This document shows positions 4,751-58,270 of a stretch of DNA of 64,000 nt, piece by piece. The notes under the pieces were generated by a model. The model saw only the letters and a program-made list of their open reading frames with translations. It was not told where the DNA came from and searched no databases. Both the position numbers and the translations under genes were made by a program. Source of the stretch: Rugalucina vietnamica (taxonomy: Eukaryota > Mollusca > Bivalvia > Lucinida > Lucinidae); the NCBI GenBank assembly GCA_964017185.1, contig OZ024870.1, positions 22,405,621-22,469,620 on the forward strand, read 5' to 3'. Numbering within the stretch: position 1 is the first letter of the stretch; each line of letters starts with the position of its first letter.

Positions 4751-4918
4751 TTTTCGTGCGTACTTTTAGCAAACAATTTCAATGGCGCAGGTGGATGCTA
4801 AACTTGGCTCGGTCTCAGCTACGTTGGTGTCTAGGTTTCGTTTAATCTGCCATGATTCTGAAACATTCAAAAAGGAAATTTACATATTTAACCATGTAAT
4901 TGCAACAAGATCTGGAAA

Positions 4919-6630
4919 GGTACAAGTAGGCAAAGATCAGGAAAAGGCGCAATCAGAAAAAGATTCCCACTCCAAAAACCCAGTTGGGAAAAAACAAACT
5001 AACAGTCGAATGAGCAGCTATTTTCCCAATAGGTGGCCACTCAGTTACCTTAACTTAACTAAAACTATGAAAACACACATAAGGCGCCAACAGCACAAAA
5101 AAATTAAACACCAAGACATAAAACAAAAAGAACCACCACAGAAGTATCGCCTTGGAACGATCAGTTACACAAAGTTACTGGCGGGCTTAAACCGGTTTTA
5201 CAGGCGCCTAGCCTCACCCTCAGCTTCTGCAGTGGTTCATAACATTTAGTTAGTTCTTCGGTCCTCGTAGTGAATCTCTAACTAGTCAATGAATCATCAA
5301 GAACAAACATATAAATCAAGATAAACATCCTGATGAATCAAAACCGAGGACTCACAGATTGAGTAAGCTGCCCGACGATGGAGATCCCTAGGCGCCAAAT
5401 AACCTACTAACTCCGGAGCAAAAGAAAAACACCAGTTGGACCCCGGTGGGCCAAGCAACAGACAAGAAGCTCCGGCCCCAACCAACTAAAATGAATAGCT
5501 TTAAGTCGGGGCCATCATAGCGTCTGACGCCCGACCCACCGGCGTGCAATTAAAGAAGGCAGCATAGTTATCAACCATGATTGGGTTAAAAACTAAGCAT
5601 GTAGACTGTCGCATAACATTCAAGTTATAACCTATACGTCTGTAACGTGTTATGATTTTTCTGAATTGAAAAGAAAAATCATTAATTCCTATAAGTTTCT
5701 TAAATTTGTAAACCAAGTCACCATAAAATTCAGGTTCCGAAAGGCCCTCACTTAAAAGCGTCTTTAACTCAACATTATATTTGGAAATCAATTCATAGTG
5801 TCTACGATAAAATTTAGAAAAGGTTTTTCGAAGTTTATGATACCGATAGCCCTGTTGGAGAAGTTTTGCCGTTAAACATTTATTTCGAGTATTGAAGTCT
5901 GTAACACGATTGCAAACTCTAGCAAACGTAATAAGTTTCAAAATGTATACACCATAAGAAGCACGACGGGGAACGTCACCATCCAAAAAAGGAAAAATTA
6001 CTATATCAAAATCAAAGTCATCGCGCTTATCATAAATTTTAGAAGAAACAAATCCATTTACAACAGAAAGATGTAGATCTAAAAAGGGGCCTTCAGTATC
6101 TGAGATATTGGCTTTGTTCAACTGTAGTTCAGGTGGATAAATTTGATTGACCATGCCTTCAAAATAAGGGTTGTCAATGTTCAAAAGGTCATCGAGGTAC
6201 CTAGATGTGGAATTGAAAGCCTCGATAACATCAGCTTGATTGTCATGGTTAAGAGAATCCATGAAATCTCTTTCATAATGCTTATTTTTAGCATTATAAA
6301 TATAAATCAGCTACGAGAGGTGCGCAATTTGTACCCATCGGAATTCCAACAATTTGTCTGTATAACTTGGTCCCAAATCTAATATAAATATTATCAAGGA
6401 GATAGGACAAGGCGTCGCACACATTCTGACATGACCAAAGTGTATACCGACTTTGGTCAGAGGAAGTGAAAAAAGCCTTTCTGTCATTACATGCCAAATA
6501 AAGTGAACCATATTTTAATGCCCTTTTGAAGGTCCACTCTATCAAATCCAGAAGTTTTTCTTTTATTAGATTATGTGGTAATGTTGTATACAAAATAGAA
6601 AAATCATATGTGGACAAGCTTGTCGCACGG
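4919..6630 (-). mobile_element. Penelope-like element (Naiad type), 5'-truncated copy
   Basis: Minus-strand copy with its 3' end at the left edge (GGTACAAGTAGGCAAAGATC) and a complete 3' UTR to 5500. The RT follows and stops abruptly inside the fingers region at 6630. After a 180-bp spacer a plus-strand PLE tail follows at 6812-7243, so the two form an inverted pair with 3' ends pointing outward, the arrangement described as typical of PLE insertions. Confidence 0.85.
5501..6630 (-). pseudogene. Penelope-like reverse transcriptase, C-terminal two thirds
   Basis: Two frames cover the RT: 6294-6617 (STYDFSILYTTLPHN motif A, GIPMGTNCAPLVADLYL motif B) and 5501-6262 (RYLDDLLNIDN catalytic YLDD motif through the C-terminus ending MMAPT and a TAA stop). 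They are separated by a local rearrangement near 6280-6300 that creates the small palindrome TAATGC...GCATTA and shifts the frame. The nuclease and linker are absent because of 5' truncation. The catalytic aspartates are intact. The stop codon sits in the same SECIS-like hairpin as in the copy at 43.5 kb. Confidence 0.85.
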
Positions 6631-6811
6631 ATCCCATATTCGGCAAAAATTCCCTATTGATTGTAACTGTAAATTATCCTGGAATAACAGTTAGATTTTT
6701 TAAGTTAAGTTTTAATTTAACGGTAAAGTTTTATTTTTATTCATTAAGAATGACTTATTTTATATTCTATGAAAAAAAAAGGAAAACAGAAAGAAACAAT
6801 TTCACCGAAAC

Positions 6812-7243: not shown

Positions 7244-7259
7244 TTTTGTATGTAACATT

Positions 7260-12541: not shown

Positions 12542-14036
12542 ACCATTTTCAAAGATCTTCTTCTCTCAAACCCCTTGGCCAATCAAAGCCAAATTTTATA
12601 TGAAGCATCTATAGGAAGGGAGAACCAATGTGTATATAAGAAATCCAGATCACATGACCAAGATGGCCGCCATGCTCATATATGGTAAAAACCCATCAAA
12701 AATCTTCTTCTCCCGAACCGGTGGACCGATTTCAACAAAACTTTGCATGAAGCATTGATAGCTCAAGCACTACAATGTGTATATAAATCATGACCCTGTG
12801 CTGACTTTGACCTATTTTACGGCAAGGTCAACATAGGTCGCCAATACATTTGAATGGGGAAAACTTTTAAAATGTCATTTAAAGTGAACGTCTTGCAGGA
12901 AATGGGCAGTAGGACTGAATTTTAATGATTCTGAAAGAAATTGGACCCCAGGGGCTCATATGCCCCACCCCGGGGCAATATACATGTACATTACCATAAT
13001 ATTCAAACATCATCTCCTCTGAAACCGCATGACCAATCAAAGCCAAATATTATGTGAAGCATCAATAGGAAGGGGTAACCAATGTATATATAAATAATCT
13101 AGGTCACATGACCAAGATGGCCGCCATGCCCATATATGGTTAAAACCCTTGAAAAATCTTCTTCTCCGGAACCGGTGTACCGATTTCAATGAAACTTGGC
13201 ATGAAGTATTAATGACTCAAGTACTACAATGTGTATATAAATCATAACGCTGTGATGACCTTGACCTTTTTTATGGCAAGGTCAACATAGGTCGCCAATG
13301 CATTTGAATGGGGAAAGCTTTAAAAATGTCATTTAAAGTGAAAGTCTTGCAGGAAATGGGCAATAGGACTGAATATTAATGATTCTGAAAAAATTGGACC
13401 CTAGGGGCTCATCTGCCCCCATCCCGGGGCATAATACATCTATATTACCATAATATTCAAACATCTTCTCCTCTGAAACTGCTTGGCCAATCGAAGCCAA
13501 ATTTTATGTGAAGCATCAATAGAATGGGGGAATCAGTGTGTATATAAATAATCTAGTTCACATGACCAAGATGGCCGCCATGCCCATATATGGTAAAAAC
13601 ACTTCAAAAATCTTCATCTCCGAAACAGGTGGACCGATTTCAAAGAAACTTGGCATGAAGCATCCATGGCTAAAGTGCTACAATGTATATATAAATCATT
13701 ACCCTATGGTGACCTTGACCTATTTTACGACAAGGTCAACATAGGTCGCCAATGCATTTGAATGGGAAATACTTTTAAAAAGTCATTTGAGGTAAAAATC
13801 TTGCAGGAAATGGGCAGTAGGACTGAATATTAGTGATTCTGAAAAAAAAATGGACCCAAGGGCTCATATGCCCCCACCCCGGGGCAATATACATGTATAT
13901 TACCATAATATTCAAACATCTTCTCCTCTGAAACCACTTGGCCAATTAAAGCCAAATTTTATGTGAAGCATGTATAGGATAGGGGAACCAATGTGTATAT
14001 TAATAATCTAGGTCACATGACCAAGTTGGCCGCCAT

Positions 14037-17285: not shown

Positions 17286-17363
17286 AATTACTGGAGTGGG
17301 GAGGCTTCAAGTTAACCAGTTTTACAGGACCCCAACCTCGCCCTCAGTTTCTGCAGTGGTTCA
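17286..17363 (-). mobile_element. PLE 3' UTR fragment, minus orientation
   Basis: Short match to the family 3' UTR (AACCAGTTTTACAGG, CTCAGTTTCTGCAGTGG). Confidence 0.6.
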
Positions 17364-17718
17364 AATAAACAAGAAATAAGGTGAATTTTGTTAAGAAAAT
17401 TATAACATATAAGTACCAACAAAACCGTCATGTGACATGTACATGTATAACACGGGTGGGCATCAGGGGAGCAACCTCGAAAACGTGTTAACGAAATTTT
17501 TTCCCACGCCACTTCCGGGAACTGTCGAGATAGTGGAAATCCCCATATTTTGATAAATACACAAAGGTGAGCTCTCGCTTTTTTGGTTTTTCTTTCAAAG
17601 AGCGCATTACTTAGCGTTTGAATGACCTGTCTGTTTCAACTGGTCAAATTCATATTGCGATTACATTTATAACGGTTAATATGTTACTTCAGACTATTGA
17701 TTATATGTTATTTCGAGC

Positions 17719-17862
17719 CAGGGAAATAGCTGCTGACTCTTTTTACGATATGTTTTCTTAGTATAAGTACCTAATTGTCAATTAATTATTCCCATCTCGG
17801 TTTTGGAGTTGGATTTTCTTTCTGATTGCGCCATTTTCCGATCATTGCCTACTTGTACCTTT
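17719..17862 (+). mobile_element. PLE 3' terminal fragment, plus orientation
   Basis: From GGGAAATAGCTGCTGACTC to the family end GCCTACTTGTACC. A second similar tail follows at 18266-18430. Confidence 0.7.
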
Positions 17863-17884
17863 CGGTACTTAAGCGACCACTTTG

Positions 17885-18100
17885 TCAATGTAATAAGGGG
17901 TCTGTGAAGCACAGTGGATAAAATACTCGATGCCACTTCTGCCTTCTAGATTCAAATCAATGTGATGGCATGTGGTAAGGTAAAGGTCGCCCACCCGAGG
18001 TCCCCGGGTTCTCCGGTTTCCTACACCACGTTTGACCACATGACGCCGAGATCCTGGCCTTCCATACGCGTATATTCGTATATGTTTCAGTAGTGTATGC
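17885..18100 (+). mobile_element. tRNA-derived SINE, diverged
   Basis: The head has a box-A-like TGAAGCACAGTGG and a box-B-like AGATTCAAATC at tRNA spacing, followed by a body with GTCCCCGGGTTCTCCGGTTT, a motif I know from invertebrate SINEs. The exact ends are unclear. Confidence 0.5.
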
Positions 18101-18265
18101 ATACATGTAATCGATGTAAAATAAATAATGCTTAAAGTAATCAGGTCCCACGGAATAATAAATGCATACAGACACGAGTACATGTAAGCCTTGCAAAAGT
18201 CTTGGTAATGGAAAAATTTCTCTTTTTTTAACTTTTTTTCTTTTCAATCTCTGTAGGCTCTATAG

Positions 18266-18430
18266 TTTTTCATAGTTTTAGTTTTCGGGTAACTGAGTGG
18301 CAGCCTGTTGGGAAATAGCTGCTCACTCGCCTTACGATATAACATTACTGTCAATTTATTTTTCCCACCTCAGTTTATGGAGTGGAAATTTCTTTCTGAT
18401 TGCACCTTTTCCTGATCATTGCCTACTTGT
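18266..18430 (+). mobile_element. PLE 3' terminal fragment, plus orientation
   Basis: GGTAACTGAGTGGCAGCCTG to GCCTACTTGT, a diverged copy of the last ~165 bp of the PLE family. Confidence 0.7.
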
Positions 18431-23013: not shown

Positions 23014-23284
23014 CGGGAAAAAAAACAAACTAACAATAAGGTACTAAGACCATGAATACATTTAGTAAGCCGAATGAGCAGCTATTTCCAAATAGGTGGC
23101 CAGTTAACTAAACTTAACTAAAATATGATAACATACATCAGGCGCCAACAGCACAAAAAATTAAACACCAAGACATAAAACAATAAGAACCACAACAGAA
23201 GTATCGCCTTGGAACAATCAGTAATGTAAAAATACTGGCGGGCTTAAACCGGTTTTACAGGATCCTAACCTCACCCTAAGCTTC
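23014..23284 (-). mobile_element. PLE 3' UTR fragment, minus orientation
   Basis: Matches the family 3' UTR from AACAAACTAACAATAAGGTA to TTTTACAGGATCCTAACCTC. Both the extreme 3' end and the RT are missing. Confidence 0.75.
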
Positions 23285-27594: not shown

Positions 27595-27755
27595 CGAGGT
27601 TGGGTCCATTAAAGGCAACAGTAGGCAATACTCAGGAATGCCCTATCAGAAAGAAATTCCCACTCCAAAAACTGAGGTGGGATAAAACAAAATTAAAAAT
27701 CAGGTACATATACGGAGAAAACATATCGTCAGCCGAGTGAGCAATTAATTTCCTT
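27595..27755 (-). mobile_element. PLE 3' terminal fragment, minus orientation (U2 copy)
   Basis: GGCAACAGTAGGCAATACTC through GAAATTCCCACTCC and CATATCGTCAGCCGAGTGAG is the last ~160 bp of a PLE. The identical arrangement at 46012-46165 in U3 shows that it inserted before the duplication. Confidence 0.7.
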
Positions 27756-28994
27756 GGTTCCTGCAAATGCAGTTTCATTCTAGTGTAGAAAAAGAAGCAC
27801 GACTAAAGATGATATTCTCTTTCGGGCAGAGACCTGTAATTATCGTTCACATAGACTCTTATTGTATTTTGCCCTAAAACAAGACTCGTACATATGCTTC
27901 TGTGGACCCCCAACACATTCAGCAGACGAAAAACACCGTATGCGAGTGCAGCAAAAATAAGGTGTTAGCCACCATCCAAGGACGGTATTTTCCGCTGTTT
28001 AGGGCACCCAACCTTACATCTTAAATTAACTGCGGTAGTTCCGTTTATACGAGGGGCGTTCAAAAAGTTCAAGGGAAAGTGCTGCCAAATATTTGATTTT
28101 CATGGAAAAATCACGTTCTCTATACATGTTGTAAATTAACATATAATTAACATATTAACAACATTTGAATAACATCGGGTGAAAAATAAACAAATTCACG
28201 TGTCTAGGGATCTCTAGTGTAACAACAGTAAATCTATGTTTTGGATCAAAATTAAGAAAAATAGGTGTGCCACTGCTAACCCCTTTTTAACTATATAAAA
28301 GTGGGGGTTAAGGGGGGTACTTATTGCCCGGACATATTAGCATGATATATGACATCGGATACCCATCAGTGTGTCATTCACATGACGGACAATTTGTGTT
28401 TGCGACAGCATAAACCATAAATATATCATTATCAGGAAATTGTTGTTTATACTGCCCTTTGCACAAATAACCATTTTGCTCACCTAAATGAACCGGAAAT
28501 ACTGCGATGTAAGAAGGGTTTTCATTTGCGTATGGACATTGGTCAGAATGTCATAGCCATACACTTTTTCACAGTTTACGCATTTTGCCAATTTATTCTC
28601 GTAACATTGTGGGGTTTTTTTCTAGGAAAAGAATTGACCAATATCACTATTAGATGCGAACACGTTAAATGTAGGTAACTCTTGCTTGTGTTATGTATCT
28701 ACATATGTATATTGAGCCCCGTTATAAGAACATATGTCTTCGGGAGTGCCTATCAGATTTGGCACAACACCTGTCTGACATGGCAAAGAAGAAGGCTAGA
28801 AAGGTTAAGTTTTACATAAAGGCGAAAACCGTGGATTGTCTTATAACGATCAACGCCAATAATGCACGGTGGACAGTATTGACGACTGTTTTTCATGCTA
28901 AATACATAGTGCATTGTCTTCCTTAAATAGAGTTTAGTAGTATTAATTAAAATTATTTAAATTCTTTAATAAATGGCGTAAATGACTATTTTGC

Positions 28995-29434
28995 AAGGCA
29001 ATGATCAGGAAAAGGCGCAATCAGAAATAAATTCCCACTCCAAAAACCAAGGTGGGAAAAACAAAAATTGGTGCTTACGAGTAGATGTATAGTTAGAAAA
29101 CTTTGGCCGAGTTAGCAGCTATTTCCCAAAAGGCGACCACACAGTTACCCCAAATTAAATAAAAATATGAAAACGTACATAAGGTTCAGAAAGCACAGAA
29201 ATGCGACTCCAAATATAGAACGCACAGAAGTATCGCCTTGGAACGATCAGTAGTATCAAACTACTGGGGGGGGGGCTTAGACCGGTTTTACAGGCGCCTA
29301 ACTTCACCCTCATCTTCTGCAGTGGTTCACAACATTCAGTTAGTTGTTCGGTCCTTGTGGTGAATCTCTAACAAGTCAATGAATCGTCAAACAAATAAAT
29401 CATGATAACCACTATAATCAATCAAAATCGAGGA
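28995..29434 (-). mobile_element. PLE 3' UTR, minus orientation
   Basis: Starts GGCAATGATCAGGAAAAGGC and covers most of the 3' UTR to AATCGAGGACA, where homology to other copies ends. A G run (GGGGGGGG) near 29268 is a local expansion. Confidence 0.8.
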
Positions 29435-29760
29435 CAAACAGAAAAACGTTATGTCCCAGTGGAAACGTCACCATTCCAGTGCGATTATTTGTGGCACACA
29501 TTCTGTTTATTCTGTCTGCCTCATTGTTGTTATTGTTGCCTTTTTGTTGAGACTAGCTGGATGGCTGCTTTGATGGCAGGAGACTTGTCGTCTTGCTCTC
29601 CGGGTGTTTTGTCGGGAAGGGTGTATTGTGTTGATTTCCTTCCCACCTGTCGTCTATGTTGGGCTTTCAAATTGTATTGCATCGATTCCTTGTCCCTCTC
29701 TTCTTACTTTCCAAACTCAAATAAATGAGTAAGGGACTCGTTCTATGCCAAAATACCTCT
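29435..29760. other. Unidentified 325-bp segment
   Basis: It lies between two PLE tails in opposite orientation. It differs in composition from its surroundings, with C/T-rich cysteine codons on the plus strand (an ORF spans 29402-29728) and a purine-rich opposite strand. I do not recognise it. It could be the filler of an inverted PLE pair. Confidence 0.3.
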
Positions 29761-37816: not shown

Positions 37817-38776
37817 ATTAAATGTTTCGTTTTAAACTGAAACCCTTTAGTTTAGTTCTTTTACAGTTAAGCAGATTTAATAGTATCCTAAATTTATGAT
37901 TCAAGCCTCAGTTGTTTTCTTGGGTGGTTATCTTCAAAGCACATTTCGGATGCCATGAGATCCTCAACCTCAATGTTCGGTAGAATTCCCATAAAATTGA
38001 GGAAACGTTCCTACATAATCATCGCTATTGACTCTGACGTAACGCAATAATTCAAACAAACAAAAAACTAACGTCGAACAAGTTGTCAAGTTACGATGAT
38101 TGCCGGAACACAAGCAGGATCATAAATTGCTGACGTATAGCATATCTAATCCACAATGTTTAAAGCCAGTTGTGTTCAACACTTCATTTTGCCAAGTAAC
38201 TATATAGCTCTCTTTATAAAGTTTATCTTGGTCTATGCATGAACGAGTGAATCTGTTCCTCTTATAATCAGAAAATCTCAAAGCTTCGAGTAATTTTCAC
38301 TTCAGCGTGGCTTGTTTCTGTATTCAAAATGACATCTTTTTTATCAAACTAATGACAGAATTTACGAGTCTTGGTTATACCGTTCTTAAAAATTGCGGTT
38401 TTCAAAGACAATCTATTAACTAACTGACCCTTGCAAAGAAGGCAAATTCTAATAAGGGTAGAGACCTGCAATTTTCGTTTCCATAGACACCCTTTGTAAT
38501 CTACCCTATAACAATACTTATTCATATGATTCACAACTCTTAGTGGACTCAAACTCATTCAGTAGACGAGAGAACGGCCCATGCCGTATGCAAGTGCAGC
38601 AATAAATTATGGTGTTAGCCAGAATCCAAGAACGGTATTTTCCGCTGAAAAGGCACACCCCAAAACATCTCAACAATGAAAAATGATCATTCATAAATCA
38701 CTACATCTGAAATTTGGCCATTGTGTGGCAAAACAGCAGCTGATCAAATTACACAAGATAGCAAAATATTTAAAGA

Positions 38777-40676
38777 GGTACAAGTAGGCAAAGATCAGGA
38801 AAAGACGCAATCAGAAAAAGATTCCCACTCTAAAAACCGAGGTGGGAAAAAACCAAACTAACAATCAGGTACTTATACCATGAAACATATCGTAAGCCGA
38901 ATGAGCAGCTATTTTCCCAATAGGTGTCCACTCAGTTACCTTAACTTAACTAAAACTATGAAAACACGCATAAGGCGCCAACAGCACAAAAAAATTTTAA
39001 ACACCAAGACATAAAACAAAAAGAACCACCACAGAAGTATCGCCTTGGAACGATCAGTAACACAAAGTTACTGGCGGGCTTAAACCGGTTTTACAGGCGC
39101 CAAACCTCACCCTCAGCTTCTGCAGTGGTTCATAACATTACGTTAGTTCTTCGGTCCTCGTGGTGAATCTCTAACTAGTCAATGAATCATCAAGAACAAA
39201 CATATAAATCAAGATAAACATCCTGATGAATCAAAACCCAGGACTCACAGATTGAGTAACCTACTAACTCCGGAGCAAAAGAAAAACACCATTTGGACCC
39301 CGGTTGGCCAAGCAACAGACAAGAAGCTCCGGCCCCAACCAACTAAAATGAATAGCTTTAAGTCGGGGCCATCATAGAGTCTGACGCCCGACCCACCGGC
39401 GTGCAATTAAAGAAGGCAGCATAGTTATCAGCCATGATTGGGTTAAAAACTAAGCATGCAGACTGTCGCATAACATTCAAGTTATAACCTATACGTCTGT
39501 AACGTGTTATGATTTTTCTGAATTGAAAAGAAAAAAATCATTAATTCCTATAAGATTCTTAAATTTGTAGACCAAGTCACCATAAAATTCAGGTTCCGAA
39601 AGGCCCTCACTTAAAAGCGTCTTTAACCCAGCATTATATTTGGAAATCAGTTCATAGTGTCTACGATAAAATTTAGAAAAGGTTTTTCGAAGTTTATGTT
39701 ACCGATAGCCCTGTTGGAGAAGTTTTGCCGTTAAACATTTATTACGGGCGTTGAAGTCTGTAACATGATTGCAGACTCTAGCAAACCTAATAAGTTGCGA
39801 AATGTATACTTCATAAGAAGCACGACGAGGAACGTCACCATCCAAAAATGGAAAATTTACTATATCAAAATCAAAGTCATCGCGCTTATCATAAATTTTA
39901 GAAGAAACAAATCCATTTGCAACAGAAAGATGTAGATCTAAAAAGGGGGCTTCGGTATCTGAGATATTGGCTTTGTTCAACTGTAGTTCAGGTGGATAAA
40001 TTTGATTGACCATACCTTCAAAATAAGGGTTGTCAATGTTCAAAAGGTGGTCGAGGTACCTAGATGTGGAATTGAAAGCCTCGATAACATCAGCTTGATT
40101 ATCATGGTTAAGAGAATCCATGAAATCTCTTTCGTAGCAGTATAAAAATAAATCAGCTACGAGAGGAGTGCAATTTGTACCCATCGGAATTCCAACAATT
40201 TGTCTGTATAACTTGGTCCCAAATCTAATATAAATATTATCAAGGAGATAGGACAAGGCGTCGCACACATTCTGACATGACCAAAGTGTATACCGACTTT
40301 GGTCAGAGGAAGTGAAAAAAGCCTTTCTTTCATTACATGCCAAATAAAGTGAACCATAGTTTTTTAATGCCCTTTTGAAGGTCCAAGCTATCAAATCCAG
40401 AAGTTTTTCTGTTATTATATTATGTGGAAATGTTGTATACAAAGTAGAAAAATCATTTGTGGACAAGCTCGTCGCACGGAACCTTCTACACTTTAATTTA
40501 CTGAACACCTCACCAGAATTATTTATTGACCAAAACCAATTTTTATTTGAAGTTTCATACACTGTCTCACAGTATCTTATAACATGAGATTTGATAGCAG
40601 TAAGACAGGAAGTTAATAATTTAGAAAGTTCAGTGGTAGTACAAGAGCTAGAATTTGCAAGAAATCTAGCTTTGTA
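38777..40676 (-). mobile_element. Outer Penelope-like element, 3' part (minus strand)
   Basis: This is the 3' half of a minus-strand PLE that continues at 44117-45037 beyond an inserted second PLE. Its 3' end (GGTACAAGTAGGCAAAGATC) follows the flank TTTAAAGA (38769-38776). Its 5' end joins TTTTAAGA at 45038-45045. U2 has the matching empty site TTTAAGA at 26608-26614. The 3' UTR runs from 38777 to 39357 and has lost a piece near 39258 compared with other copies. Confidence 0.9.
39358..40676 (-). pseudogene. RT of the outer PLE, C-terminal part
   Basis: Minus-strand RT, open from the junction at 40676 to a nonsense codon at about 39699 (a TAT to TAA change, GYR then stop). The sense frame then continues to the natural stop at 39358-39360. 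Motif A (DFSTLYTTFPHN) and motif B (GIPMGTNCTPLVADLFL) are intact, but the catalytic YLDD reads YLDH (RYLDHLLNID), so the second catalytic aspartate is lost. The N-terminal part of this gene lies at 44117-45037. It was split by the inner PLE between the codons for KRPYK and ARF. Confidence 0.9.
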
Positions 40677-40677
40677 G

Positions 40678-43501
40678 CTTGTATATGTTCTTACTTGAAA
40701 TACAAACAATTGTAGGATGCAATATGTTGGACAAACTTGTCGAACTTTGCAAAAACGATTTGGTGAGCACTATCGTAGAATCAGAAAGCCCAAAAATAAT
40801 GATACCTTTCTGTACCAGCATTTTAAGCGCACTGGTCATTCTCCCAATGATGTTAAAGTTCAACCAGTGGAGAAAATCTCATATGATGAAAATTCTTCAG
40901 TTAGATTCAAAAATATTAAACGATTTGAAACTGAACTTAAATGGATAAAATTACTGCAAACACCCTTTCCACTGGGATTTAACGACAACATTTACCATGA
41001 AGGCAATATTTCCAAAATGCCCGATTTTGATGTACTTACACTTTCAGAGTCTCGTAAACGTAAATCTAGATCTCATGGTATACGGAAAAGGGGTAATGAC
41101 AAACGTAAACGGTGCGCTGCATTGAAATTGAACATTTCCCTTAATGATTTAGCTGTTAAACTAAGGATTCACGGTCGACATCCAATGCTGTCTTATCTTA
41201 GTTCTCTACCTATTGCTGCATTACGTTCCCTGGACACAGAGGCTAATAGATTTTACGATAGAAATCATCAAATGTATGACGCTGCACTGTTAACAAGATG
41301 TTATACTCAGCATGCTCTTCGTCCATTTATCGATTCCGAATCTAATCACATTAGAAGTTTTATTAAAATTCCTTTCATCAATAAAGGAATTGACTTTATT
41401 GATTTATCAAGCATATTCCAGGATAAATCAGTGATACAGTCTATACCTACCTACTTCCAAAATTCAGAACCTCCTATTATTTGTTACAAATATAACAAAC
41501 CAATCAGAAATACTATTTTTAATTTCAATAAACTTGTTTCTGATCTTGATATCCATGCTAATACTCCTAAGTCTTGAGATTGTAAAGATTCAAAATATGT
41601 TTACCAACCAGCTGGACATATAGTTACTGGAAATTTAAAAATAATTTCGGATTCTAGAATTCGCAAAATTGTTTCTAAAGGTCCGAAATATAGATTCCCT
41701 TCCTACATTAATTTCGACAAATGTAGAGAGGAGATTGCATCTGCATTAAATGATTTCGGTAATCGATGGTGTAAACGAGAGGGTGTTGAGGATAATGCTC
41801 TTAAAGAATGGAAAAGAAGTATCTTCACTATCGTGGATAAACGTATTAAGTTTTATTCACAAAATACTAATCTTTTACCTCCTAAACCCAAATCGTCATT
41901 TAGGCATTTGAAGCAGGGTATCCAAGAATTTCATAGAAAGTATGTCTTTGTTCCGGCAGATAAAGCCGCAAACAATGTTGTTGTCGTTTGTAGACTTCAC
42001 TACGTTAACACCTTAAAACAGGAGCTTGATGGTACCAGGGCTTATCTGGAGACAGATACTGATGAGGTGTCTGTAGTAAATGCCCACTTAAACGATTTAC
42101 CTGTTAAGTTTTCTGTTTGTGTCAATGAAGGCCAAGACAAACTTCCTACGATGTATTGGTTACCTAAGCTTCACAAAAGACCATACAAAGCTAGATTTAT
42201 TGCAAATTCTAGCTCTTGTACTACCACTGAACTTTCTAAATTATTAACTTCTTGTCTTACTGCTATCAAATCTCATGTTATAAGATACTGTGAGACAGTG
42301 TATGAAACTTCAAATAAAAATTGGTTTTGGTCAATAAAAAATTCTGGTGAGGTGCTCAGTAAATTGAAGTGTAGAGGGTTCCGTGCGACAAGCTTGTCCA
42401 CATATGATTTTTCTACTCTGTATACAACATTACCACATAATCTAATTAAAGAAAAACTTCTGGATTTGATAGAGTGGACCTTCAAAAGGGCATTAAAAAA
42501 CTATGGTTCACTTTATTTGGCATGTAATGACAGAAAGGCTTTTTTCACTTCCTCTGACCAAAGTCGGTATACCCTTTGGTCATGTCAGAATGTGTGCGAC
42601 GCCTTATCCTATCTCCTTGATAATATTTATATTAGATTTGGGACCAAGTTATACAGACAAATTGTTGGAATTCCGATGGGTACAAATTGCGCACCTCTCG
42701 TAGCTGATTTATTTTTATACTGCTACGAAAGAGATTTCATGGATTCTCTTAACCATGATAATCAAGCTGATGTTATCGAGGCTTTTAATTCCACATCTAG
42801 GTACCTCGATGACCTTTTGAACATTGACAACCCTTATTTTGAAGGTATGGTCAATCAAATTTATCCACCTGAACTTCAGTTGAACAAAGCTAATATCTCA
42901 GATACCGAAGCCCCCTTTTTAGATCTACATCTTTCTGTTGCAAATGGATTTGTTTCTTCTAAAAATTTATGATAAGCGCGATGACTTTGATTTTGATATA
43001 GTAAATTTTCCATTTTTGGATGGTGACGTTCCTCGTCGTGCTTCTTATGGTGTATACATTTCGCAACTTATTAGGTTTGCTAGAGTCTGCAATCATGTTA
43101 CAGACTTCAACGCTCGAAATAAATGTTTAACGGCAAAACTTCTCCAACAGGGCTATCGGTATCATAAACTTCGAAAAACCTTTTCTAAATTTTATCGTAG
43201 ACACTATGAATTGATTTCCAAATATAATGTTGGGTTAAAGACACTTTTAAGTGAGGGCCTTTCGGAACCTGAATTTTATGGTGACTTGGTTTACAAATTA
43301 AAGGAACTTAAAGGAATAAATGATTTTTCTCTTCAGTTCGGAAAAATCATAACACGTTACAGACGTATAGGTTATAACTTGAATGTTATGCGACAGTCTG
43401 CATGCTTAGTTTTTAACCCAATCATGGTTGATAACTATGCTGCCTTCTTTAATTGCACGCCGGTGGGTCGGGCGTCAGACTCTATGATGGCCCCGACTTA
43501 A
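40678..43501 (+). CDS. GIY-YIG endonuclease / reverse transcriptase of a Naiad-type PLE, with in-frame UGA (selenocysteine) codons and one frameshift
   Basis: A single long frame of about 940 codons. It opens LVYVLT-UGA-NTNNC-RM-QYVGQTCRTLQKRFGEHYRRI: the GIY-YIG core (VY...YVG) with catalytic R and E/H residues. The UGA at 40696-40698 stands where the first Cys of the CCHH set is expected; the two His are in RFGEHY and FLYQHF. After a basic region (ESRKRKSRS) comes the linker, NTPKS-UGA-DCKDSKY (UGA at 41575-41577), i.e. U-D-C instead of CxC, followed by QPAGHIVTGNLKI. The RT runs from about 41780: YDFSTLYTTLPHN (motif A), GIPMGTNCAPLVADLF (B), RYLDDLLNID (YLDD, C), and a C-terminus ending MMAPT, TAA. 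Apart from the UGAs, the only break is one extra A in AAAAA at 42961-42965 (other copies have four), shifting the frame for the last ~180 codons. I infer selenocysteine at both UGAs; the alternative is two nonsense mutations. Confidence 0.85.
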
Positions 43502-43559
43502 AGCTATTCATTTTAGTTGGTTGGGGCCGGAGCTTCTTGTCTGTTGCTTGGCCCACCGG
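43460..43559 (+). promoter_or_regulatory. Putative SECIS element overlapping the RT stop codon
   Basis: A long hairpin whose outer stem is CCGGTGGG (43460-43467) with CCCACCGG (43552-43559), then CAGAC (43476-43480) with GTCTG (43539-43543). ATGA follows at 43484-43487, then the inner stem GGCCCCGACT with GGTTGGGGCC, and GGAG at 43529-43532. AAA at 43500-43502 lies at the start of the apical loop, 12 nt after ATGA. This is the order of a eukaryotic SECIS: AUGA, helix, AAR loop, GA. The TAA stop (43499-43501) lies inside it. The sequence is well kept in the copies near 5460-5570 and 39300-39400, and partly in older ones. Confidence 0.6.
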
Positions 43560-44116
43560 GTTCCAACTGGTGTTTTTCTTTTGCTCCGGAGTTAGTAGGT
43601 TATTCGGCGCCCAGGGATCTCCATCGTCGGGCAGCTTACTCAATCTGTGAGTCCTGGTTTTTGATTCATCAGGATGTTTATCATGATTTATTTGTTTGTT
43701 CTTGATGATTCATTGACTAGTTAGAGATTCACCACGAGGACCGAAGAACTAACTAAATGTTGTGAACCACTGCAGAAGCTGAGGGTGAGGTTAGGTACCT
43801 GTAAAACCGGTTTAAGCCCGCCAGTAACTTTGTGTTACTGATCGTTCCAAGTCGATACTTCTGTAGTGGTTCTTTTTGTTTTATGTCTTGGTGTTTAAAA
43901 TTTTTTGTGCTGTTGGCGCCTTATGTATGTTTTCATATTTTTAGTTAAGTTAAGGTAACTGAGTGGCCACCTATTGGGAAAATAGCTGCTCATTCGGCTT
44001 ACGATATGTTTCATGGTAATAGTACCTGATTGTTAGTTTGGTTTTTTCCCACCTCGGTTTTTGGAGTGGGAATCTTTTTCTGATTGCGCCTTTTCCTGAT
44101 CTTTGCCTACTTGTAC
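43502..44116 (+). other. 3' UTR of the inner PLE
   Basis: 615 bp after the stop, ending in TTTGCCTACTTGTAC. Landmarks shared by every PLE tail in the window are ATTCATTGACTAGTTAGAGA, AAACCGGTTTAAGCCCGCCA, TTACTGATCGTTCCAAG, GGCCACCTATTGGGAAAATA and the short inverted motif CCCACCTCGG/CCAAAAACCG. The tail alone is found many times in both orientations, so most insertions here are extreme 5' truncations. Confidence 0.85.
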
Positions 44117-45037
44117 CTTTGTACGGTCTTTTGTTAAGCTTAGGTAACCAATACATCGTAGGAAGTTTGTCTTGGCCTTCATTGACACAAACAGAAAACT
44201 TGACAGGTAAATCGATTTAGTGGGCATTAACTACAGACACTTCATCAGTATCTGTCTCCAGATAAGCCCTGGTACCATCAAGCTCCTGTTTTAAGCTGTT
44301 AATGTAGTGAAGCCTACAAACGACAACAACATTGTTTGCGGCTTTGTCTGCCGGAACCAAGACATACTTTCTATGAAATTCTTGGATACCCTGCTTCAAA
44401 TGCCCAAATGACGATTTGGGTTTAGGAGGTAAAAGATTAGTATTTTGTGAATAAAACTTAATACGTTTATCCACGATAGTGAAGCTACTTCTTTTCCATT
44501 CTTTAAGAGCATTATCTTCTTTTATCTCCTCTCGTTTACACCATCGATTACTGAAATCATTTAATCCAGATGCAATCTCCTCTCTACATTTGTCGAAATT
44601 AATGTAGGATAGGAATCTATATTTCGGACCTTTTGAAACAATTTTGCGAATTCTAGAATCCGAAATTATTTTTAAATTTCCAGTTACTATATGTCCGGCT
44701 GGTTGACAAACATATTTTGAATCTTTACAATCTCAAGACTTAGGAGTATTAGCATGGATATCAAGATCAGAAACAAGTTTATTGAAATTAAAAATAGTAT
44801 TTCTGATTGGTTTGTTATATTTGTAACAAATAATAGGAGGTTCTGAATTTTGGAAGTAGGTAGGTATAGACTGTATCACTGATTTATCCTGGAATATGCT
44901 TGGTAAATCAATAAAGTCAATTCCTTTATTAATGAAAGGAATTTTAATAAGACTTCTAATGTGATTAGATTCGGAATCGACAAATGGACGAAGAGCATGC
45001 TGAGTATAACATCTTGTTAACAGTGCAGCTTCATACA
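44117..45037 (-). pseudogene. Outer PLE, N-terminal remainder: linker and RT start
   Basis: Minus strand. It starts at 45037 inside the nuclease-linker spacer (at MYEAALLTRC), so the GIY-YIG domain is missing. It reads NKLVSDLDIHANTPKS, then UGA (44733-44735), then DCKDSKYVCQPAGH: the same UGA-x-Cys as the inner copy. The RT N-terminal region follows (44217-44474, DKRIKFYSQNTNLLPPKPKS) with a TAA after VVNAH and at least one frameshift between 44475 and 44730, then LPTMYWLPKLNKRPYK, where the inner PLE is inserted. The rest is at 39358-40676. Confidence 0.88.
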
Positions 45038-45296
45038 TTTTAAGAATGGTTACACTCTCATATGGCAAAGACGGTAGATAGAAACGCATTTATGACCAAA
45101 TGTTGGTAGCCTGACATCATATTTACTACTGTCACTCTGCCCACACTCTGGGCAAATCGTTTGTAACGTTTTAATTAGAGGTATCTGCCCTTAACACACA
45201 AACTGTTTCATTTATTTTGACAAGATATTGCAACCAAATAATAAAGAAGTCTCTTACAATAACATTGATGCTGTTTGATGCTTTGTTAAATGTATC

Positions 45297-46011: not shown

Positions 46012-46165
46012 GATACAGTCAAGGCAACAGTAGGCAATAATCAGGAAATGCCCTTTCAGAAAGAAATTCCCACTACAAAAACCGAGGTGGGAAAAAACTA
46101 AATTAACAATCAGGTACATATACAAAGAAAACATATCGTCAGCCAGGTGAGCAGCTAATTTCCTC
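46012..46165 (-). mobile_element. PLE 3' terminal fragment, minus orientation (U3 copy)
   Basis: U3 counterpart of 27595-27755 (GGCAACAGTAGGCAATAATC ... CATATCGTCAGCCAGGTGAG). Confidence 0.7.
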
Positions 46166-51614: not shown

Positions 51615-52055
51615 TATTACACATGTATATTGAGCCCCGTTATGAGAAAATATGTTTTCGGAAGCGCATATCAGATTTGGCACAGCACCTGTCTGACATG
51701 GCAAAGAAGAAGGCTAGAAAGGTTAAGGTTTGCATTAAGGCGAAAACCGTGGATTGTCTTTTAACGATCAACCCCAAAAATGCCCGGTGGACAGTATTGA
51801 CGACTGGATTCCATGCTAAATACGTAGTGCATTGTCTTTCTTAAAGTTTAGTAGTAGTAGTAGAAGAAGTAGTAGTTCACAGTTCGAGTTATATACAAAT
51901 TCCAGAATTATCGTAATTTCCTGCTTAAAGTTTTGATGTTTTGTCTTTGTGAAATATGTGTGCGCCAGTTGAGCATCATGTATGTTTTTCTTTTAATTTC
52001 TTTAATTAAAATCATTTAAATTATTTAATAAATGGCGTACGTTGGACGATTAAAG

Positions 52056-52143
52056 CATGCAATGATCAGGAAAGGGCGCATTCGGAAAGAAGGCCCACTC
52101 CAAAAACCGAGGTGGGAAAAAACAAATGGACAATAAGGTATTT
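52056..52143 (-). mobile_element. PLE 3' terminal fragment, minus orientation
   Basis: GCAATGATCAGGAAAGGGCG ... AAAAACCGAGGTGGGAAAAA, about 90 bp only. It lies just upstream of the plus-strand copy at 52415. Confidence 0.65.
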
Positions 52144-52414
52144 GTAGTGGAGGTACAACTCAAGGTTACAGGAAGTGCACTTCTAGTGCACATTCTTTGA
52201 GAGACAAGTGCACTTAGGTTAGAGCGACATCAGAACACGATGTGCACAACGAATTGGACTGCTGGTGCACCTTAGTCTAAAATTGCGCTGTATTTAGAGT
52301 GACATCTAAATACATTATCAGATTCTTAATTTTCTTGCAATTTTGAACTTCATGTGTTTAATCTATAATTATATTCAACTTTTGAGAACAATTTGTGGAT
52401 AGCAGTCGCTCAAT
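52144..52414. other. Spacer between inverted PLE pieces
   Basis: Contains repeated GTGCAC-type words (AAGTGCACTTCTAGTGCACA, GGTGCACC). No gene is recognised. Confidence 0.4.
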
Positions 52415-53639
52415 TTCCTACGATGTATTGGTTACCTAAGCTTCACAAAAGACCGTATACGGCTAACTTTATTGCAAATTCTAGTTCTTGTACTACCACT
52501 AAACTTTCTAAATTATTAACTTCCTCTCTTACTGCTATCAAATCTCATGTCATACGATACTGCGAGACGGTGTATGAAACTTCAAATAAAAACTGGCTTT
52601 GGTCAATAAAACATTCTGGCGAGGTGCTCAGTAAACTAAAGTGAAGAGGGTTCCGTGCGACGAGCTTGTCCACATACCGTATTTCTACTTTGTATACCAC
52701 ATTGCCACATAATCTGGTTAAAGAAAAACATCTCGATTTGATAGGGTGACTTTCAATTAAAAAAACTATGGTTCACTTAATTTGGCCTGTAATTACAGAA
52801 AAGCTTTTTTCACTTCCTCTGACCAAAGTCGATATACACTTTGGTCATGTCAGAATGTATGCGATGCCTTATCCTATCTCCTGAATAATATTTATATTAG
52901 ATTCGGAACCAAGTTATACAAACAAATTGTTGTAATTCTGATGGTAACAAATTGAGCCCCTCTCGTAGCTGATTTATTTTTATTCTGCTACGAAAGAGAT
53001 TTCATGGAGTCTCTTAATCATGATTATCAAGCTGATGTTTTCGAGGCCTTCAATTCGACTTTTAGGTACCTCGATGACCTTTTGAACATTGACAATCCTT
53101 ATTTGGAAGGCATAGTCAATCAAATTTATCCATCTGAACTACAGCCAACACCACAGATATTGAAGCCCCCTTTTAGGATTTACATCTTTCTATTGCAAAT
53201 GGATTTATTTATGATAAACGCGATGAATTTCATTTTGATATAGTAAATATCCGTTTTTGTTATGGTGGCGTTCCTCGCCATGCTTCGTATGGTGTATAAA
53301 TGTCTGCATTCATGTAGCGGACTTAAACGCAAGAAATAAATGTTTAACAGCCAAACTTCTCCAGCAGGGCTATTGGTATCATACACTTCGAAAAATATTT
53401 GCTAAATTTTATCGCAGACACTATGAGTTGATTTCCAAATGTTAGGCTGAAGATGCTTTTAAGTGAGGGCCTTTCGGAACCAGAAATTTATGGTGACTTG
53501 GCTCACAAATTTAAGAAACGGATAGGAAGAAATGATTTTTTTCTTTTCATTACATGGTTAATAACTATGCTGGCTTCTTTAATGCACGCCGGTGGATCGG
53601 GCGTCAGACTCTATGATTGCCCCGACATAAAGCTATTCA
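52415..53639 (+). pseudogene. Decayed PLE reverse transcriptase with UGA at two cysteine codons
   Basis: Recognisable from MYWLPKLHKRPYTANFIANS to a C-terminus near 53635. The catalytic FRYLDDLLNID is kept (53062-53094). In 52415-53100 the frame meets three UGAs and no UAA or UAG: at KLK-UGA-RGFRA (other copies have Cys), at LIG-UGA-LS (others have Trp, next to small indels), and at VTN-UGA-APLVADLF (others have Cys). Frameshifts follow from about 53140 on. Either this subfamily used more selenocysteines, or these are chance Cys-to-stop changes in a dead copy. Confidence 0.75.
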
Positions 53640-54004
53640 TTTAGTTGGTTAGGGCCGGAGCTTCTGGTCTGTTGCTTGGCCCACGGGGATTCAATTTGTG
53701 TTTTTCTTTTGCTCCGGGTTTCAGTAAGTTATTCGGTGCCCAGGGATCTCCATCGCAGGCAGCTTACTGAATCTGTTGTCCTCGTTTTTTGATTCACCAG
53801 GGTGGTTATCATGATTTATTTGTTTGTCCTTGATGATTCATTGACTAGTTAGAGATTCGCCACGAGGATCGAACAACTAGTAACTAAATGTTGTGAACCA
53901 ATGCAGAAGATGAGGGAGAGGTTAGGCGCCTGTAAAACCGGTTTAAGCCCCCAGTAGTTTTATATAACTGATCGTTCCAAGGCGATACTTCTGTTGTGGT
54001 TTCT
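52415..54004 (+). mobile_element. Penelope-like element, 5'-truncated and decayed copy
   Basis: Plus strand, starting within the RT at FPTMYWLPKLHKRPY and running through a decayed RT and 3' UTR to about 54004. There the family tail stops early (TGTTGTGGTTTCTTTTACGT) and joins the sequence shared with 30860-31230. The final ~200 bp of the tail are therefore missing. Confidence 0.85.
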
Positions 54005-54599
54005 TTTACGTAATATGTTTTGAATAGATATGGATAACTTGTCCGCAGCGTCTGTTGCATCCGTTTGTTTTGGTGTGACTGTACTTTAACAAAAAACGGT
54101 GGTTGCTTACATCAAATCGCACCGTTTTATATGCAAGAGAGTGTAATATCACGTATCTGAAGATTTCCGTAAAAGATGGTACCACAAATAATGTAGTCAA
54201 GTATATGTATCTCTTTAGTATGCATCTGAATATATCCAAAAACGTTATTTTGAATTCGAGCAGCAACCATCTTGAATGTGCTCGCATTTATATGTAATTA
54301 CATGTATAATACGTAAATTCATTAAGAACAATTAGTCCCGCCCACAAATATCGACGGACTGCTACGTATAGTATCCGCAACTATCCGCAGCATCTGTAAG
54401 AGTAAGTGTGACCCAGCTCTAACCAGTACTCCTAAATGAGCAACAAACATGTCTTTATGTAGGACGCGATGTTAATTTATTATAAATAGATCCATATAGC
54501 CTAAAAATTCTAAAATTTGATAAACTTTTGCTTTTGCTTCGGCCTACGATGTGTTCTCTAAGTATATGTGCATGTAACTGATCGTCACTTTTCTTTGTT

Positions 54600-54660
54600 C
54601 CCAACATTTTTTATTTGGATTTCCTTCTGATTTCCTGATCATTGCCTAGTTTTACCTTTT
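54600..54660 (+). mobile_element. PLE 3' terminal fragment, plus orientation
   Basis: Very diverged tail: TTTCCTGATCATTGCCTAG then TTTTACCTTT. Confidence 0.45.
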
Positions 54661-56011
54661 TATTTTTAAAACCTTTTTTCAATCTCTTTGGTTACTCTAA
54701 ATACACAGTATGTTCCCCATTTTCAAGAATTCTGCCAACGCTACTGTAGGACACTTCATTTATAGACTTACTACTATCTGCAATCATATTTATTATAGGA
54801 AAACTATTAAGATGAAAAACATAATTTCGCAATAATTATGTTTCATAGACTAGTAGCTAGTCTATCCACCAGTGTGTCCTGTCGGTCGATAGTAATTCCC
54901 GGTTCATAATAAAATGACTGATAACTTGATACATGATAACAGTGATTTATTTTATCTAAACTACAAGATTTCATTTTCGGTTGATTTTTCTTTTTATGTA
55001 CGCTCTACAATTTCAAAAGTCATCCCTCCATAGTACTTATATTGAACTCATCCCTCAGCTGCTATTATTTTGATGCATTATACCGCGAAGGAATCAGAAA
55101 AAGAAAAGAAATCTCTAAGCTTTGAGTTAATTCCGTCTTATATAGCGTTGCTTATAATATAAAATAGCATAATTTGAATCTGCGAAGGCTTGTTGCGGTA
55201 TTGGAAATGACATCTTTTTCATCAAAATAAAGACATGATTTACGAGTCTTGCTTACAACATACATAAATGTATACAATATGTGCTAAAAGGTATTTTTTG
55301 TGTATGCAATCTCTTAAAGTATGTTTGAACTTTGTGTATATTTGACTCCTCAGTATTTTGCGATCATTGTAGGTTCTGTAATAGACCTGGGCATCGTTAG
55401 TGTTTACCTTTATATATAAATCCGAACAAAATGACAAGCGGTGAAATCAACATAATCCCAACGAAATTTCGTTTTTTCAGCTCCATGTGCATATAAATGA
55501 CAACGAAATCTAAATGAAATCGTTGCAGCATGGTCAGTAAATTCGTCCAGTTCGTGTTCTTCTTAGTGCGTGATGATTATTGTGATCATGCGCTGGCCTC
55601 TTGTTCACCTGGAAAGATGAAAGGATGGACTCAAAAACTGATAGCAGATGATTCGAGACATGTATAGTAAAAAAGTTTGATCTTTGCATAAGCAATTTAA
55701 TATTTGTCCCATGACAGCTGAGGTGAGCATAAAAACTCGGGGTCTGATTGACTGCGTACGATAAATCATGTCATTCGAGTTTCAAAGAGTGTACATTTTT
55801 CTTAAGAGAAATCATAGGTCCCTTATTTCACACAAATATGTTTCCAGAAACTGCAATATAAGTGTAACTTTATTTGTTAATATGTATTGTACAGTGTACA
55901 CAATGATCAGTAAGCCAAGTTCACAGAAAATGTGCTGGAGCAACAAATCAAAACTACTAATTTCTAAAAAGGTGAACCATAACCGAACAAAATATAACAT
56001 GAAATAACTTT

Positions 56012-56452
56012 TGAAGTTGTCGGGCAGCTTACTGAATCTATGAGTCTTCGTTTTTGATTTATCATGGTGGTTATCCTGATTTATGTGTTTGTCCTTGATG
56101 ATTCATTGACTAGTTAGAGATGCACCACGAGGACCGAACAATTAACTAAATGTTGTAAACCACTGCAGAAGCTGAGGATGATGTTATGGCCCTGTAAAAT
56201 CGTTTTCAGCCAGCCAGTAATTTTGTGTTACTGATCATTCCAATGCTATACTTCTGAGGTGGTTCTTATTGTTTTATCTTTTGGTGTTGAATTTTTGTGC
56301 TGTTAGCACCTTATGTATGTTTTCATATTATTAGTAAAGTTTGGGTAACTGAGTGGCCACCTAATGGGTAAATGGCTGCTCATTCGGCTTACAATATGTT
56401 TTCTAAGTACCTGATTTTTCCCACCTCGGTTTTTGGAGTAGGAATTACTTTT
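56012..56452 (+). mobile_element. PLE 3' UTR fragment, plus orientation
   Basis: From TTGTCGGGCAGCTTACTGAA through GATTCATTGACTAGTTAGAG to TTCCCACCTCGGTTTTTGGA. It is placed in U4 where U2 has the poly(T) tract at 19860-19904, just before TTAATTTTCTGAAATGAC. Confidence 0.8.
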
Positions 56453-58270
56453 TGTTACCTTAATTTTCTGAAATGACTGATTTGTCGAGTGATCGAGTGA
56501 TGTCAAAGACAAGCATAAGGGGCGAATGACGAAGAGACGTCGACGTTTACGTGTACAGTGAAGGTCTTCCGGTCTTTCAACTTTGTTGAGTGAAAAAAAG
56601 TGTCTGATTTTTATACTAGCAACTATGAAGCGAAGCACTTAGTAGCAACAATTGAATCAAATTAAAATATGACAACATCGTTAAAAGGAATCAGATTTCC
56701 TGTGTGCATTAAAACAATTAAATTACATATGCACGTTTACGACATCAAGTCGGAAGCAAGGCGGGACAATAAATAATAAAATAGATATCTAATACATTAT
56801 AGTGTATCCATAAATTTCCAATTCGTGTTTGAAGAGACATCGTTCGTAACTTGAGTTGATTCTTATAGACATGTCAACCGAATCAGTGGAAAAATATGCA
56901 TTGGACATTGATTTTGTTTATTTTTATTCCAGCCTAGTCACATCGAGTTAATACAACCCATTAAGATGCCAACTGTCATATACTTTTAGTGAAACATTCA
57001 TCCTTTACAGAAGATTAAAGATCAAATTGTTGCCAATTCTTCACACAAACTTCGTGTCTAAAATCTCGATCGCTACAATATGAATCAGATTTATTTACAC
57101 TACTGTATTCATTTGCCATTAAAAAGGCATCATTTTCCCATTAAAATGACATGAAAATAACTAAACCCATTAATTCTTGCCATTAATCCTTGTTGAAATA
57201 TTTTTAATGGGATTTTGCTATACCATTAAAATAGCATTATATTCATGTACACATGCCTTTAAACTAACAAACAAAAATGTTCCCGGTAATGTTGAAACTT
57301 TCATGGCCATTAAAAGTCAGTTAATTCTTGTTAAGAATTGTTTTAATGGCACATTAAAGGGGGTTACTTTAATGGTGAGTATCATTAAAGTAATGGGCAA
57401 TGCTGTCCAAGTTGATGTTCAAATTTTCATGGCCATAAAAATGCCAGTTTATTCCTTTAGGGAGTTGTTTTCATGGCAAATTAAAGGGGCTTAATCCAAT
57501 GGAAAAAAATTAAAGACATTTAAAATAATGGCCAATTTTATGTTAAGACTTTCAGGGCCATAAAAAACTTGTTAAATCTTGTAGAAAGCTGTTTTCATGG
57601 CAAATTAAGGGGAATTAATTTAATGGTGTAAAATTTAATGACATATAAAATAACGGCCCAGTTGATGTTCAAACTTTCATGGCCATAAAAAACTAGTTAA
57701 CTCCCGTAGAAAGTTGTTTTCATGGCAAATTAAATAAGATTAATTTAATGGTAAAAATAATGATATTCAAAGTAATGACCACAAAATTGGAAAACTATTT
57801 TAAAGTCCTTCAGTTAAACAGTGGAATTAACTCTGCTGTCATTAAAATAACAAACAAAACTAGTCTAGTTCATGTTAAAACTATCATGGCTATTAAAAAT
57901 CTGTTAAATCTAGAAAGGAATTAGTCACATGAAGGGGTTTTGTTCGAAGGTTATAGAACTCTTGCATTTTCGAGACGAGCTTTAATTTTTTGCGTGTAAG
58001 GTTAGGGTTTGGTGCAACCAGTCCTTGAGCTTGGAAGTTTAGTTTGGGTCCTTCACAATTTTAAGCAGGTGCTTAAATGTAATTGGTCAACTAAAGGTAA
58101 TAAAATGATAATAAAACAGTAAAATAAAATTTCACCTTTAGCCCTACCCAGAGGCATGGACCCTGCATTCAGATCCGGGATTCAGATGTCATGGAATGAA
58201 GGTTATAACTCTATTAGGTACCAATGGTCCAAGTATAGACAGCTTCTTATTAGTGTTTGCAGGATATGAA

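What the first reader, a model, noticed from the sequence alone, without database searches (positions are those of the whole stretch)
40696..41577. Retrotransposon frame read through two UGA codons that sit on conserved cysteines (candidate selenoprotein)
Seen: the frame of the inner PLE is open from 40678 to 42972 except for UGA at 40696-40698 and 41575-41577. The first stands where PLE nucleases have the first Cys of CCHH, four residues before the next Cys. The second gives U-D-C where Naiad-type elements have CxC. The outer copy has the same linker UGA (44733-44735) followed by the same Asp-Cys. Random nonsense would not be expected to hit two Cys sites and be shared between copies. Known: multi-selenocysteine Naiads have been published from clams and spiders. 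Inferred: both UGAs encode Sec here.
Basis: partly seen in the sequence, partly recalled or inferred. Interest (0 to 1): 0.85.

Follow-up and report, generated by a model that had tools for sequence, protein, structure and literature searches.

The report
Retrotransposon encoding three selenocysteines
A jumping gene with very many copies in this animal's genome appears to read three stop codons as the rare amino acid selenocysteine, each where its relatives use cysteine; such elements have been reported before in clams and spiders, so this is a strong further case rather than a new phenomenon.

Summary
The element at 40677-44116 is a 5'-truncated, frameshifted copy of a Naiad-type Penelope-like retroelement nested in an older copy. 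Longer copies elsewhere in the genome carry a 1101-codon frame, ended by UAA, with exactly three internal UGAs (codons 157, 168, 461); the window copy is cut off just after the first. UGA stands at 168 and 461 in 30 of 30 copies fetched and at 157 in 29 of 29; the best 46 places for a full-length Cys-type query all have three internal stops, all UGA. In homologues these sites are Cys or Trp (Trp taken as UGA; inferred), while neighbouring cysteines 173 and 463 are always Cys. A fourth site, codon 599, is Cys here and UGA-like in relatives. A SECIS lies at 43476-43543 and at the matching place in 29 of 29 other copies; the element's own stop codon lies inside it. The genome has two tRNA-Sec(UCA) genes and eEFSec; SepSecS was not found. 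Selenocysteine recoding is by far the best explanation; protein-level proof is missing. Multi-selenocysteine Naiads from clams and spiders are in print (recalled), so this is a new member of a known kind.

The parts
40677..44116 (+). inner Naiad-type PLE copy, 5'-truncated at about codon 162, frameshifted near 42965
   Evidence: flanked by a 7-bp direct repeat CTTTGTA (40670-40676 and 44117-44123)
40696..40698 (+). UGA, codon 168 of the full frame: Cys site of the nuclease cysteine/histidine motif, five positions before invariant Cys173
41575..41577 (+). UGA, codon 461: first Cys of the CxC linker (U-D-C)
41989..41991 (+). TGT Cys, codon 599, the fourth site: UGA-like in related families, Cys here
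43476..43543 (+). SECIS element (Rfam RF00031 SECIS_1, 39 bits, cut-off 35); larger hairpin 43460-43560, -60.5 kcal/mol, z -7.7
43499..43501 (+). UAA that ends the frame in intact copies; lies inside the SECIS and overlaps its apical adenosines
44114..45040 (-). outer PLE copy, 5' part
38776..40676 (-). outer PLE copy, 3' part, with its own SECIS
44733..44735 (-). UGA of the outer copy at the codon-461 site, followed by Asp-Cys
39316..39383 (-). SECIS of the outer copy (39 bits)
4916..6635 (-). another 3' fragment of the same family (94% identical)
5459..5526 (-). SECIS of that fragment (38 bits)

Best explanation
It is a Naiad-type Penelope-like retroelement whose single protein (N-terminal GIY-YIG nuclease, CxC linker, telomerase-like reverse transcriptase) is a selenoprotein. 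Ribosomes on the element's RNA insert selenocysteine at three UGAs: codons 157 and 168 in the nuclease's cysteine motif and 461 in the linker CxC. One SECIS hairpin at the 3' end, about 1.9 to 2.8 kb downstream, would recruit the host's SECIS-binding protein, eEFSec and tRNA-Sec. Sec stands in for conserved, probably metal-binding, cysteines. Shown by sequence: the frame, the UGAs, the Cys homology, the SECIS match, tRNA-Sec and eEFSec. Inferred: actual Sec insertion, that one SECIS serves all three UGAs, metal binding, enzyme activity.
For: 19 of 30 fetched copies have a 1101-codon frame with exactly three internal UGAs. The best 46 places (of 17,767 first-look candidates) for the full-length Cys-type query P0062 all have three internal stops, all TGA; the best 54 (of 23,020) for P0026 have TGA only, 52 with one and 2 with two. 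Homologues, pairwise: site 157 C34/W4, 168 C38/W3, 461 C66/W13; neighbouring Cys173 C 44 of 44, Cys463 C 81 of 81. W at all three sites in P0083 (75% identity), P0047 (69%) and P0094 (40%). Fourth site 599: C92/W17/R1, and 10 more homologues end exactly one residue before it. On a 98-row tree the C/UGA-like state changes at least 2, 2, 2 and 5 times at the four sites. SECIS_1 at the matching place in 29 of 29 other copies L002-L030, 26 over the cut-off; hairpin z -7.7, 0 of 200 shuffles as good. Two tRNA-Sec genes over the cut-off (79 and 71.2 bits), called tRNA-Sec with anticodon TCA by ARAGORN; eEFSec domain 138.5 bits, 0 of 14 control genomes. Variant codons among 21 near-identical copies: 55 nonsynonymous, 29 synonymous, 1 to a stop, against a neutral N:S of 2.6-3.4.
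Against: No peptide, ribosome-profiling or selenium-label data. W in homologues, and the stop behind the proteins that end at 598 or 460, are taken to be UGA; their DNA was not seen. One homologue aligns with L at 157 in the multiple alignment (P0011, whose N-terminus looks unrelated) and one has R at 599 (P0050). P0099 has W at 157 alone within a Cys lineage. SepSecS was not found with TIGR03531 (a gene split into exons could be missed), SBP2 was not tested. No compensatory base change in the SECIS among six window copies. One SECIS-bearing old copy has lost the core. A direct Pfam scan of the protein finds neither nuclease nor RT. The window copy is broken, and the 30 copies are near-identical, hence not independent.
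Confidence: 0.93

Rival explanations
1. The UGAs are ordinary nonsense mutations of one master copy that was amplified by intact relatives acting in trans.
For: Copies are near-identical, so one ancestor's mutations would be shared. Many old fragments are in the window. Private extra TGAs do occur (L042, L043).
Against: All three stops are UGA and on conserved Cys, in a 1101-codon frame; the sites are UGA-like in lineages down to 40% identity; a SECIS sits at the 3' end. Two Cys-type queries returned only UGA-type copies among the best-scoring places, so no Cys-type helper was seen, though only the best places were scored.
Confidence: 0.03
2. UGA is read through as another amino acid (for example Trp), not Sec.
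For: Database proteins with W at these sites run on through them.
Against: Relatives without W have Cys at the sites; a SECIS and tRNA-Sec are present.
Confidence: 0.02
3. The UGAs split the element into separately started proteins, nuclease and reverse transcriptase made apart.
For: Long open frames follow the UGAs (292 and 464 codons in the window copy).
Against: Explains neither why the stops are UGA and on Cys nor the SECIS; the UGAs at 157 and 168 are only 11 codons apart; Cys-type homologues are single proteins with both domains.
Confidence: 0.02

Closest known systems
Naiad N-terminal-endonuclease Penelope-like elements of spiders and clams (Craig et al. 2021, Mol Biol Evol 38:5005, doi 10.1093/molbev/msab225)
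   Same: Nuclease - CxC linker - RT order, several selenocysteines, tandem copies. This content is recalled from the abstract; the paper is not held and only its title was seen, in a reference list.
   Different: Which UGA sites and SECIS positions were published could not be checked. Here: three UGAs at 157/168/461, Cys at the fourth site 599, stop codon inside the SECIS.
Cys-type homologues (P0062, P0067, P0123; 36-38% identical)
   Same: Same domain order and the same conserved cysteines.
   Different: Cys at all four sites; Cys-x2-Cys spacing instead of x4.
Selenoprotein P
   Same: Several Sec residues in one animal protein.
   Different: SelP has two SECIS elements in its 3' UTR (PMC2397514, passage); here one SECIS was found, overlapping the end of the coding frame, in a mobile element.

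Membership tests
Naiad-type (N-terminal EN) PLE | GIY-YIG nuclease N-terminal to the RT | tested here: met
   By homology: P0123 has GIY-YIG 107-195 and RVT_1 625-826 and aligns along the element. A direct Pfam scan of the element finds neither.
Naiad-type (N-terminal EN) PLE | CxC motif in the linker | tested here: met
   U461-D-C463; C463 invariant in the 49-row alignment. Met if Sec counts as Cys.
Naiad-type (N-terminal EN) PLE | CCHH motif in the nuclease | tested here: met
   U168, C173, H192, H209; the last three invariant in the 7-row alignment. That these are the CCHH residues is my reading, the motif recalled.
Naiad-type (N-terminal EN) PLE | telomerase-like RT | tested here: met
Naiad-type (N-terminal EN) PLE | insertion-in-fingers domain in the RT | not tested
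   recalled feature; not examined
Naiad-type (N-terminal EN) PLE | tandem copies (pseudo-LTRs) | tested here: met
   Head-to-tail matches 4228 bp apart on C1 and C16, 4231 bp on C13 (coordinates). Pseudo-LTR ends were not mapped.
Naiad-type (N-terminal EN) PLE | tree position among named Naiads | not testable with these tools
   No named Naiad sequences were at hand; homologues are unnamed but for one MAG label.
Eukaryotic selenoprotein gene | in-frame UGA where homologues have Cys | tested here: met
Eukaryotic selenoprotein gene | SECIS downstream of the UGAs | tested here: met
Eukaryotic selenoprotein gene | Sec machinery in the host | tested here: inconclusive
   tRNA-Sec x2 and eEFSec found; SepSecS not found; SBP2 not tested.
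Eukaryotic selenoprotein gene | Sec in the protein | not testable with these tools
   needs mass spectrometry, selenium labelling or reporters

The most novel reading that the evidence does not exclude
The element's stop codon is built into its own SECIS. Ribosomes that have decoded all three UGAs must enter and melt the SECIS to terminate, which would transiently switch off recoding for the ribosomes behind them. With three UGAs in series this would make the yield of full-length protein self-limiting and dependent on the host's selenium supply: a selenium-gated retrotransposon. The C-terminal residues DSMMAPT would exist because the SECIS 5' arm is translated.
Probability: 0.15. Interest if true: 0.75.

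Novelty: new member of a known kind. Interest (0 to 1): 0.52.

Why it matters
A retrotransposon whose linker site occurs at 1,473 places in one genome (within 3 mismatches) appears to depend on selenocysteine. Its relatives show Cys/UGA-like exchange at four sites, a natural experiment on how proteins gain and lose Sec, and one in which Sec seems to stand in for structural or metal-binding cysteines. The stop codon inside the SECIS is a testable oddity: how far does SECIS function tolerate translation into it?

Tried and rejected
Covariation in the SECIS: six window copies gave no compensatory pair; they are young or decayed, so this says little. Related DNA outside the genome: viral contigs and genome contigs gave no relative, so the codons behind W in homologues could not be read; one search was rejected because the alignment had no conserved enough stretch. 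Cys-type copies in the same genome: two Cys-type queries returned only the UGA family among the best places. Searches with P0094 and with an 81% identical window fragment, meant to find diverged subfamilies, and with PF05889 (SepSecS) did not complete. SepSecS by TIGR03531: no match. Species: COX1 best hit 87% but unnamed; the other listed hits (best 120 of 7,999 scored) are 66-69% and come from insects, harvestmen, crustaceans, Panopea, chitons, Phoronopsis and others, so the species is not identified. A bivalve is suggested, weakly, by a host-like 80% identical protein in a MAG of Candidatus Thiodiazotropha (P0056; that this symbiont lives in lucinid clams is recalled), and by listed copies lying on contigs C1-C17 only, compared with Tridacna gigas, 1,175.9 Mb in 17 chromosomes (PMC11116938, search listing). 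Sequence search of solved structures gave one chance-level match. Structure comparison covers the RT part; the nuclease was not folded or searched by itself. Rfam found no hammerhead; below-threshold matches to FopS and twister-P1 were taken as chance. Papers on PLE with selenocysteine or selenoprotein: none in the held library (wider searches), which lacks the key paper, so this says nothing about what is in print.

Full report
WHAT IS THERE. The window lies in an unnamed 1.09-Gb genome, G000:C2:22405621-22469620. At 40677-44116 (+) is a copy of a Penelope-like retroelement inserted into an older, opposite-strand copy (38776-40676 and 44114-45040), with a 7-bp direct repeat CTTTGTA on both sides. 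The copy is 5'-truncated and has lost register near 42965, so its TGA at 42970 is only a frameshift stop.

OTHER COPIES. A search of the genome with the window's 2295 bases gave 42 places, 40 of them over the whole query at about 100% identity; 40 of 2756 first-look candidates were scored, so this is a lower bound. Of the 30 copies fetched (one is the window's), codons 168 and 461 are TGA in 30 of 30, and codon 157 is TGA in 29 of 29, the window copy lacking it. 19 of the 30 have a 1101-codon frame with exactly three internal TGAs, ending at TAA. One more has a longer frame with an extra upstream TGA. The other 10, the window's included, are shorter by truncation, frameshift or an early stop, and two of these have extra TGAs. 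With the full-length Cys-type homologue P0062 as query, the best 46 places (of 17,767 candidates) carry three internal stops, all TGA, in open frames of 993-1146. With P0026, Cys-type at 461 and 599, the best 54 (of 23,020) carry TGA only, 52 one and 2 two. The extra TGAs of those two are private, one at a Trp and one at a poorly conserved Cys (L042, L043). The context of codon 461 occurs at 1473 places within 3 mismatches, against 0 for the reversed control; of the 100 listed, all without mismatch, 98 have TGA, 1 TAA and 1 AGA.

HOMOLOGUES. 133 proteins came from two searches (192 hits, best 120 listed; 29 hits). Some of the near-identical ones may be from this same species. Pairwise to the element: site 157, C34 W4; site 168, C38 W3; site 461, C66 W13; Cys173 is C in 44 of 44 and Cys463 in 81 of 81. 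In the 49-row multiple alignment one row, P0011, shows L at 157; its N-terminus looks unrelated. W at the sites is most simply UGA read by a code with UGA=Trp; the DNA was not seen. Ten proteins end exactly at residue 598 and two at 460, as translation stopped at those codons would give (which stop is unknown). Site 599, in the RT, is C92 W17 R1; in the window it is TGT. A tree of 98 rows on 134 columns puts the element in a starred clade of 26 rows in which site 461 is UGA-like wherever known; site 599 there is UGA-like in 13 rows, Cys in 11 (the element's own 8-row group and P0017-P0019) and unknown in 2. A looser set of relatives is UGA-like at 599 but Cys at 461. At least 2, 2, 2 and 5 changes are needed at sites 157, 168, 461 and 599 (few columns, many forks open, direction not inferred). 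So Cys and UGA-like states have been exchanged repeatedly at the same positions, which is what Sec predicts.

SECIS. Rfam reports three matches in the 64-kb window above threshold, all SECIS_1 and all in copies of this family: 43476-43543, 39316-39383 and 5459-5526. Core AUGA, apical AAA and 3' GGA are present. The larger hairpin folds at -60.5 kcal/mol, z -7.7, with 0 of 200 shuffles as good. Of 29 other copies, L002-L030, 29 have the match at the corresponding place, 26 above the cut-off and L004, L014 and L028 at 33.5, 31.2 and 31.2 bits below it. Two of the more diverged window copies keep AUGA and AAA, and one old copy has lost AUGA; there is no covariation. The TAA that ends the frame (43499-43501) lies inside the SECIS and overlaps its apical adenosines, so the last residues are encoded by the SECIS 5' arm. 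Homologues P0006 and P0027, 73% identical, end with SDSMMVPT against SDSMMAPT here, which suggests that the arrangement is older than this family. That SECIS elements in coding regions can work is the title of Mix et al. 2007, seen in the reference list of PMC2397514.

HOST. Two matches to the tRNA-Sec model are over its cut-off and are called tRNA-Sec, anticodon TCA, by ARAGORN; the other 22 matches are below the cut-off, and the one of them checked is a tRNA-Ser. The model also rings below the cut-off in many control genomes, so only the two count. The eEFSec domain is present, 138.5 bits. SepSecS was not found by one model. Species not identified.

MECHANISM. UGAs 157 and 168 stand just before and at the first strand of the nuclease and, with Cys173, His192 and His209, make up its cysteine/histidine motif; UGA 461 is the first residue of the CxC linker. 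The predicted model, with Cys for Sec, has mean pLDDT 80.7, and from about residue 433 on it matches telomerase reverse transcriptase. I infer that Sec replaces probably metal-binding cysteines without changing the kind of enzyme, and that one SECIS serves all three UGAs. Whether this is an advantage or near-neutral drift between Cys and Sec is open; the repeated exchange at site 599 leans towards near-neutrality.

KNOWN OR NEW. Multi-selenocysteine Naiads from clams and spiders are in print (Craig et al. 2021; title seen, content recalled, paper not held). This is therefore a well-supported further member. The stop codon inside the SECIS and the switch at site 599 may be new details, but could not be compared with that paper.

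Noticed in passing
window 1632-3242, 4916-7244, 9795-10556, 17314-18430, 23016-23284, 27611-29442, 46021-46163, 52053-56453: More 3' fragments of the same or related PLEs, 76-94% identical, lie in this 64-kb stretch, which suggests several waves of insertion.
   Followed up: partly
window 10311-10405: An old copy whose SECIS core reads ATAA in place of ATGA while much of the hairpin persists.
   Followed up: no
window 12548-14036: Tandem array of a 454-bp unit, 3.3 copies, 88% matches, next to a CGTC microsatellite.
   Followed up: no
window 57289-57757: Tandem array of a 125-bp unit, 3.7 copies, 76% matches.
   Followed up: no
G000 C1:28935502-28946251, C16:28607175-28613696, C13:44463211-44469735: Head-to-tail copies of the element at 4228-bp (C1, C16) or 4231-bp (C13) spacing.
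   Followed up: partly
P0056: A protein labelled as from a MAG of Candidatus Thiodiazotropha endolucinida is 80% identical to this element over 39% of the query: probably host DNA in a symbiont bin.
   Followed up: no
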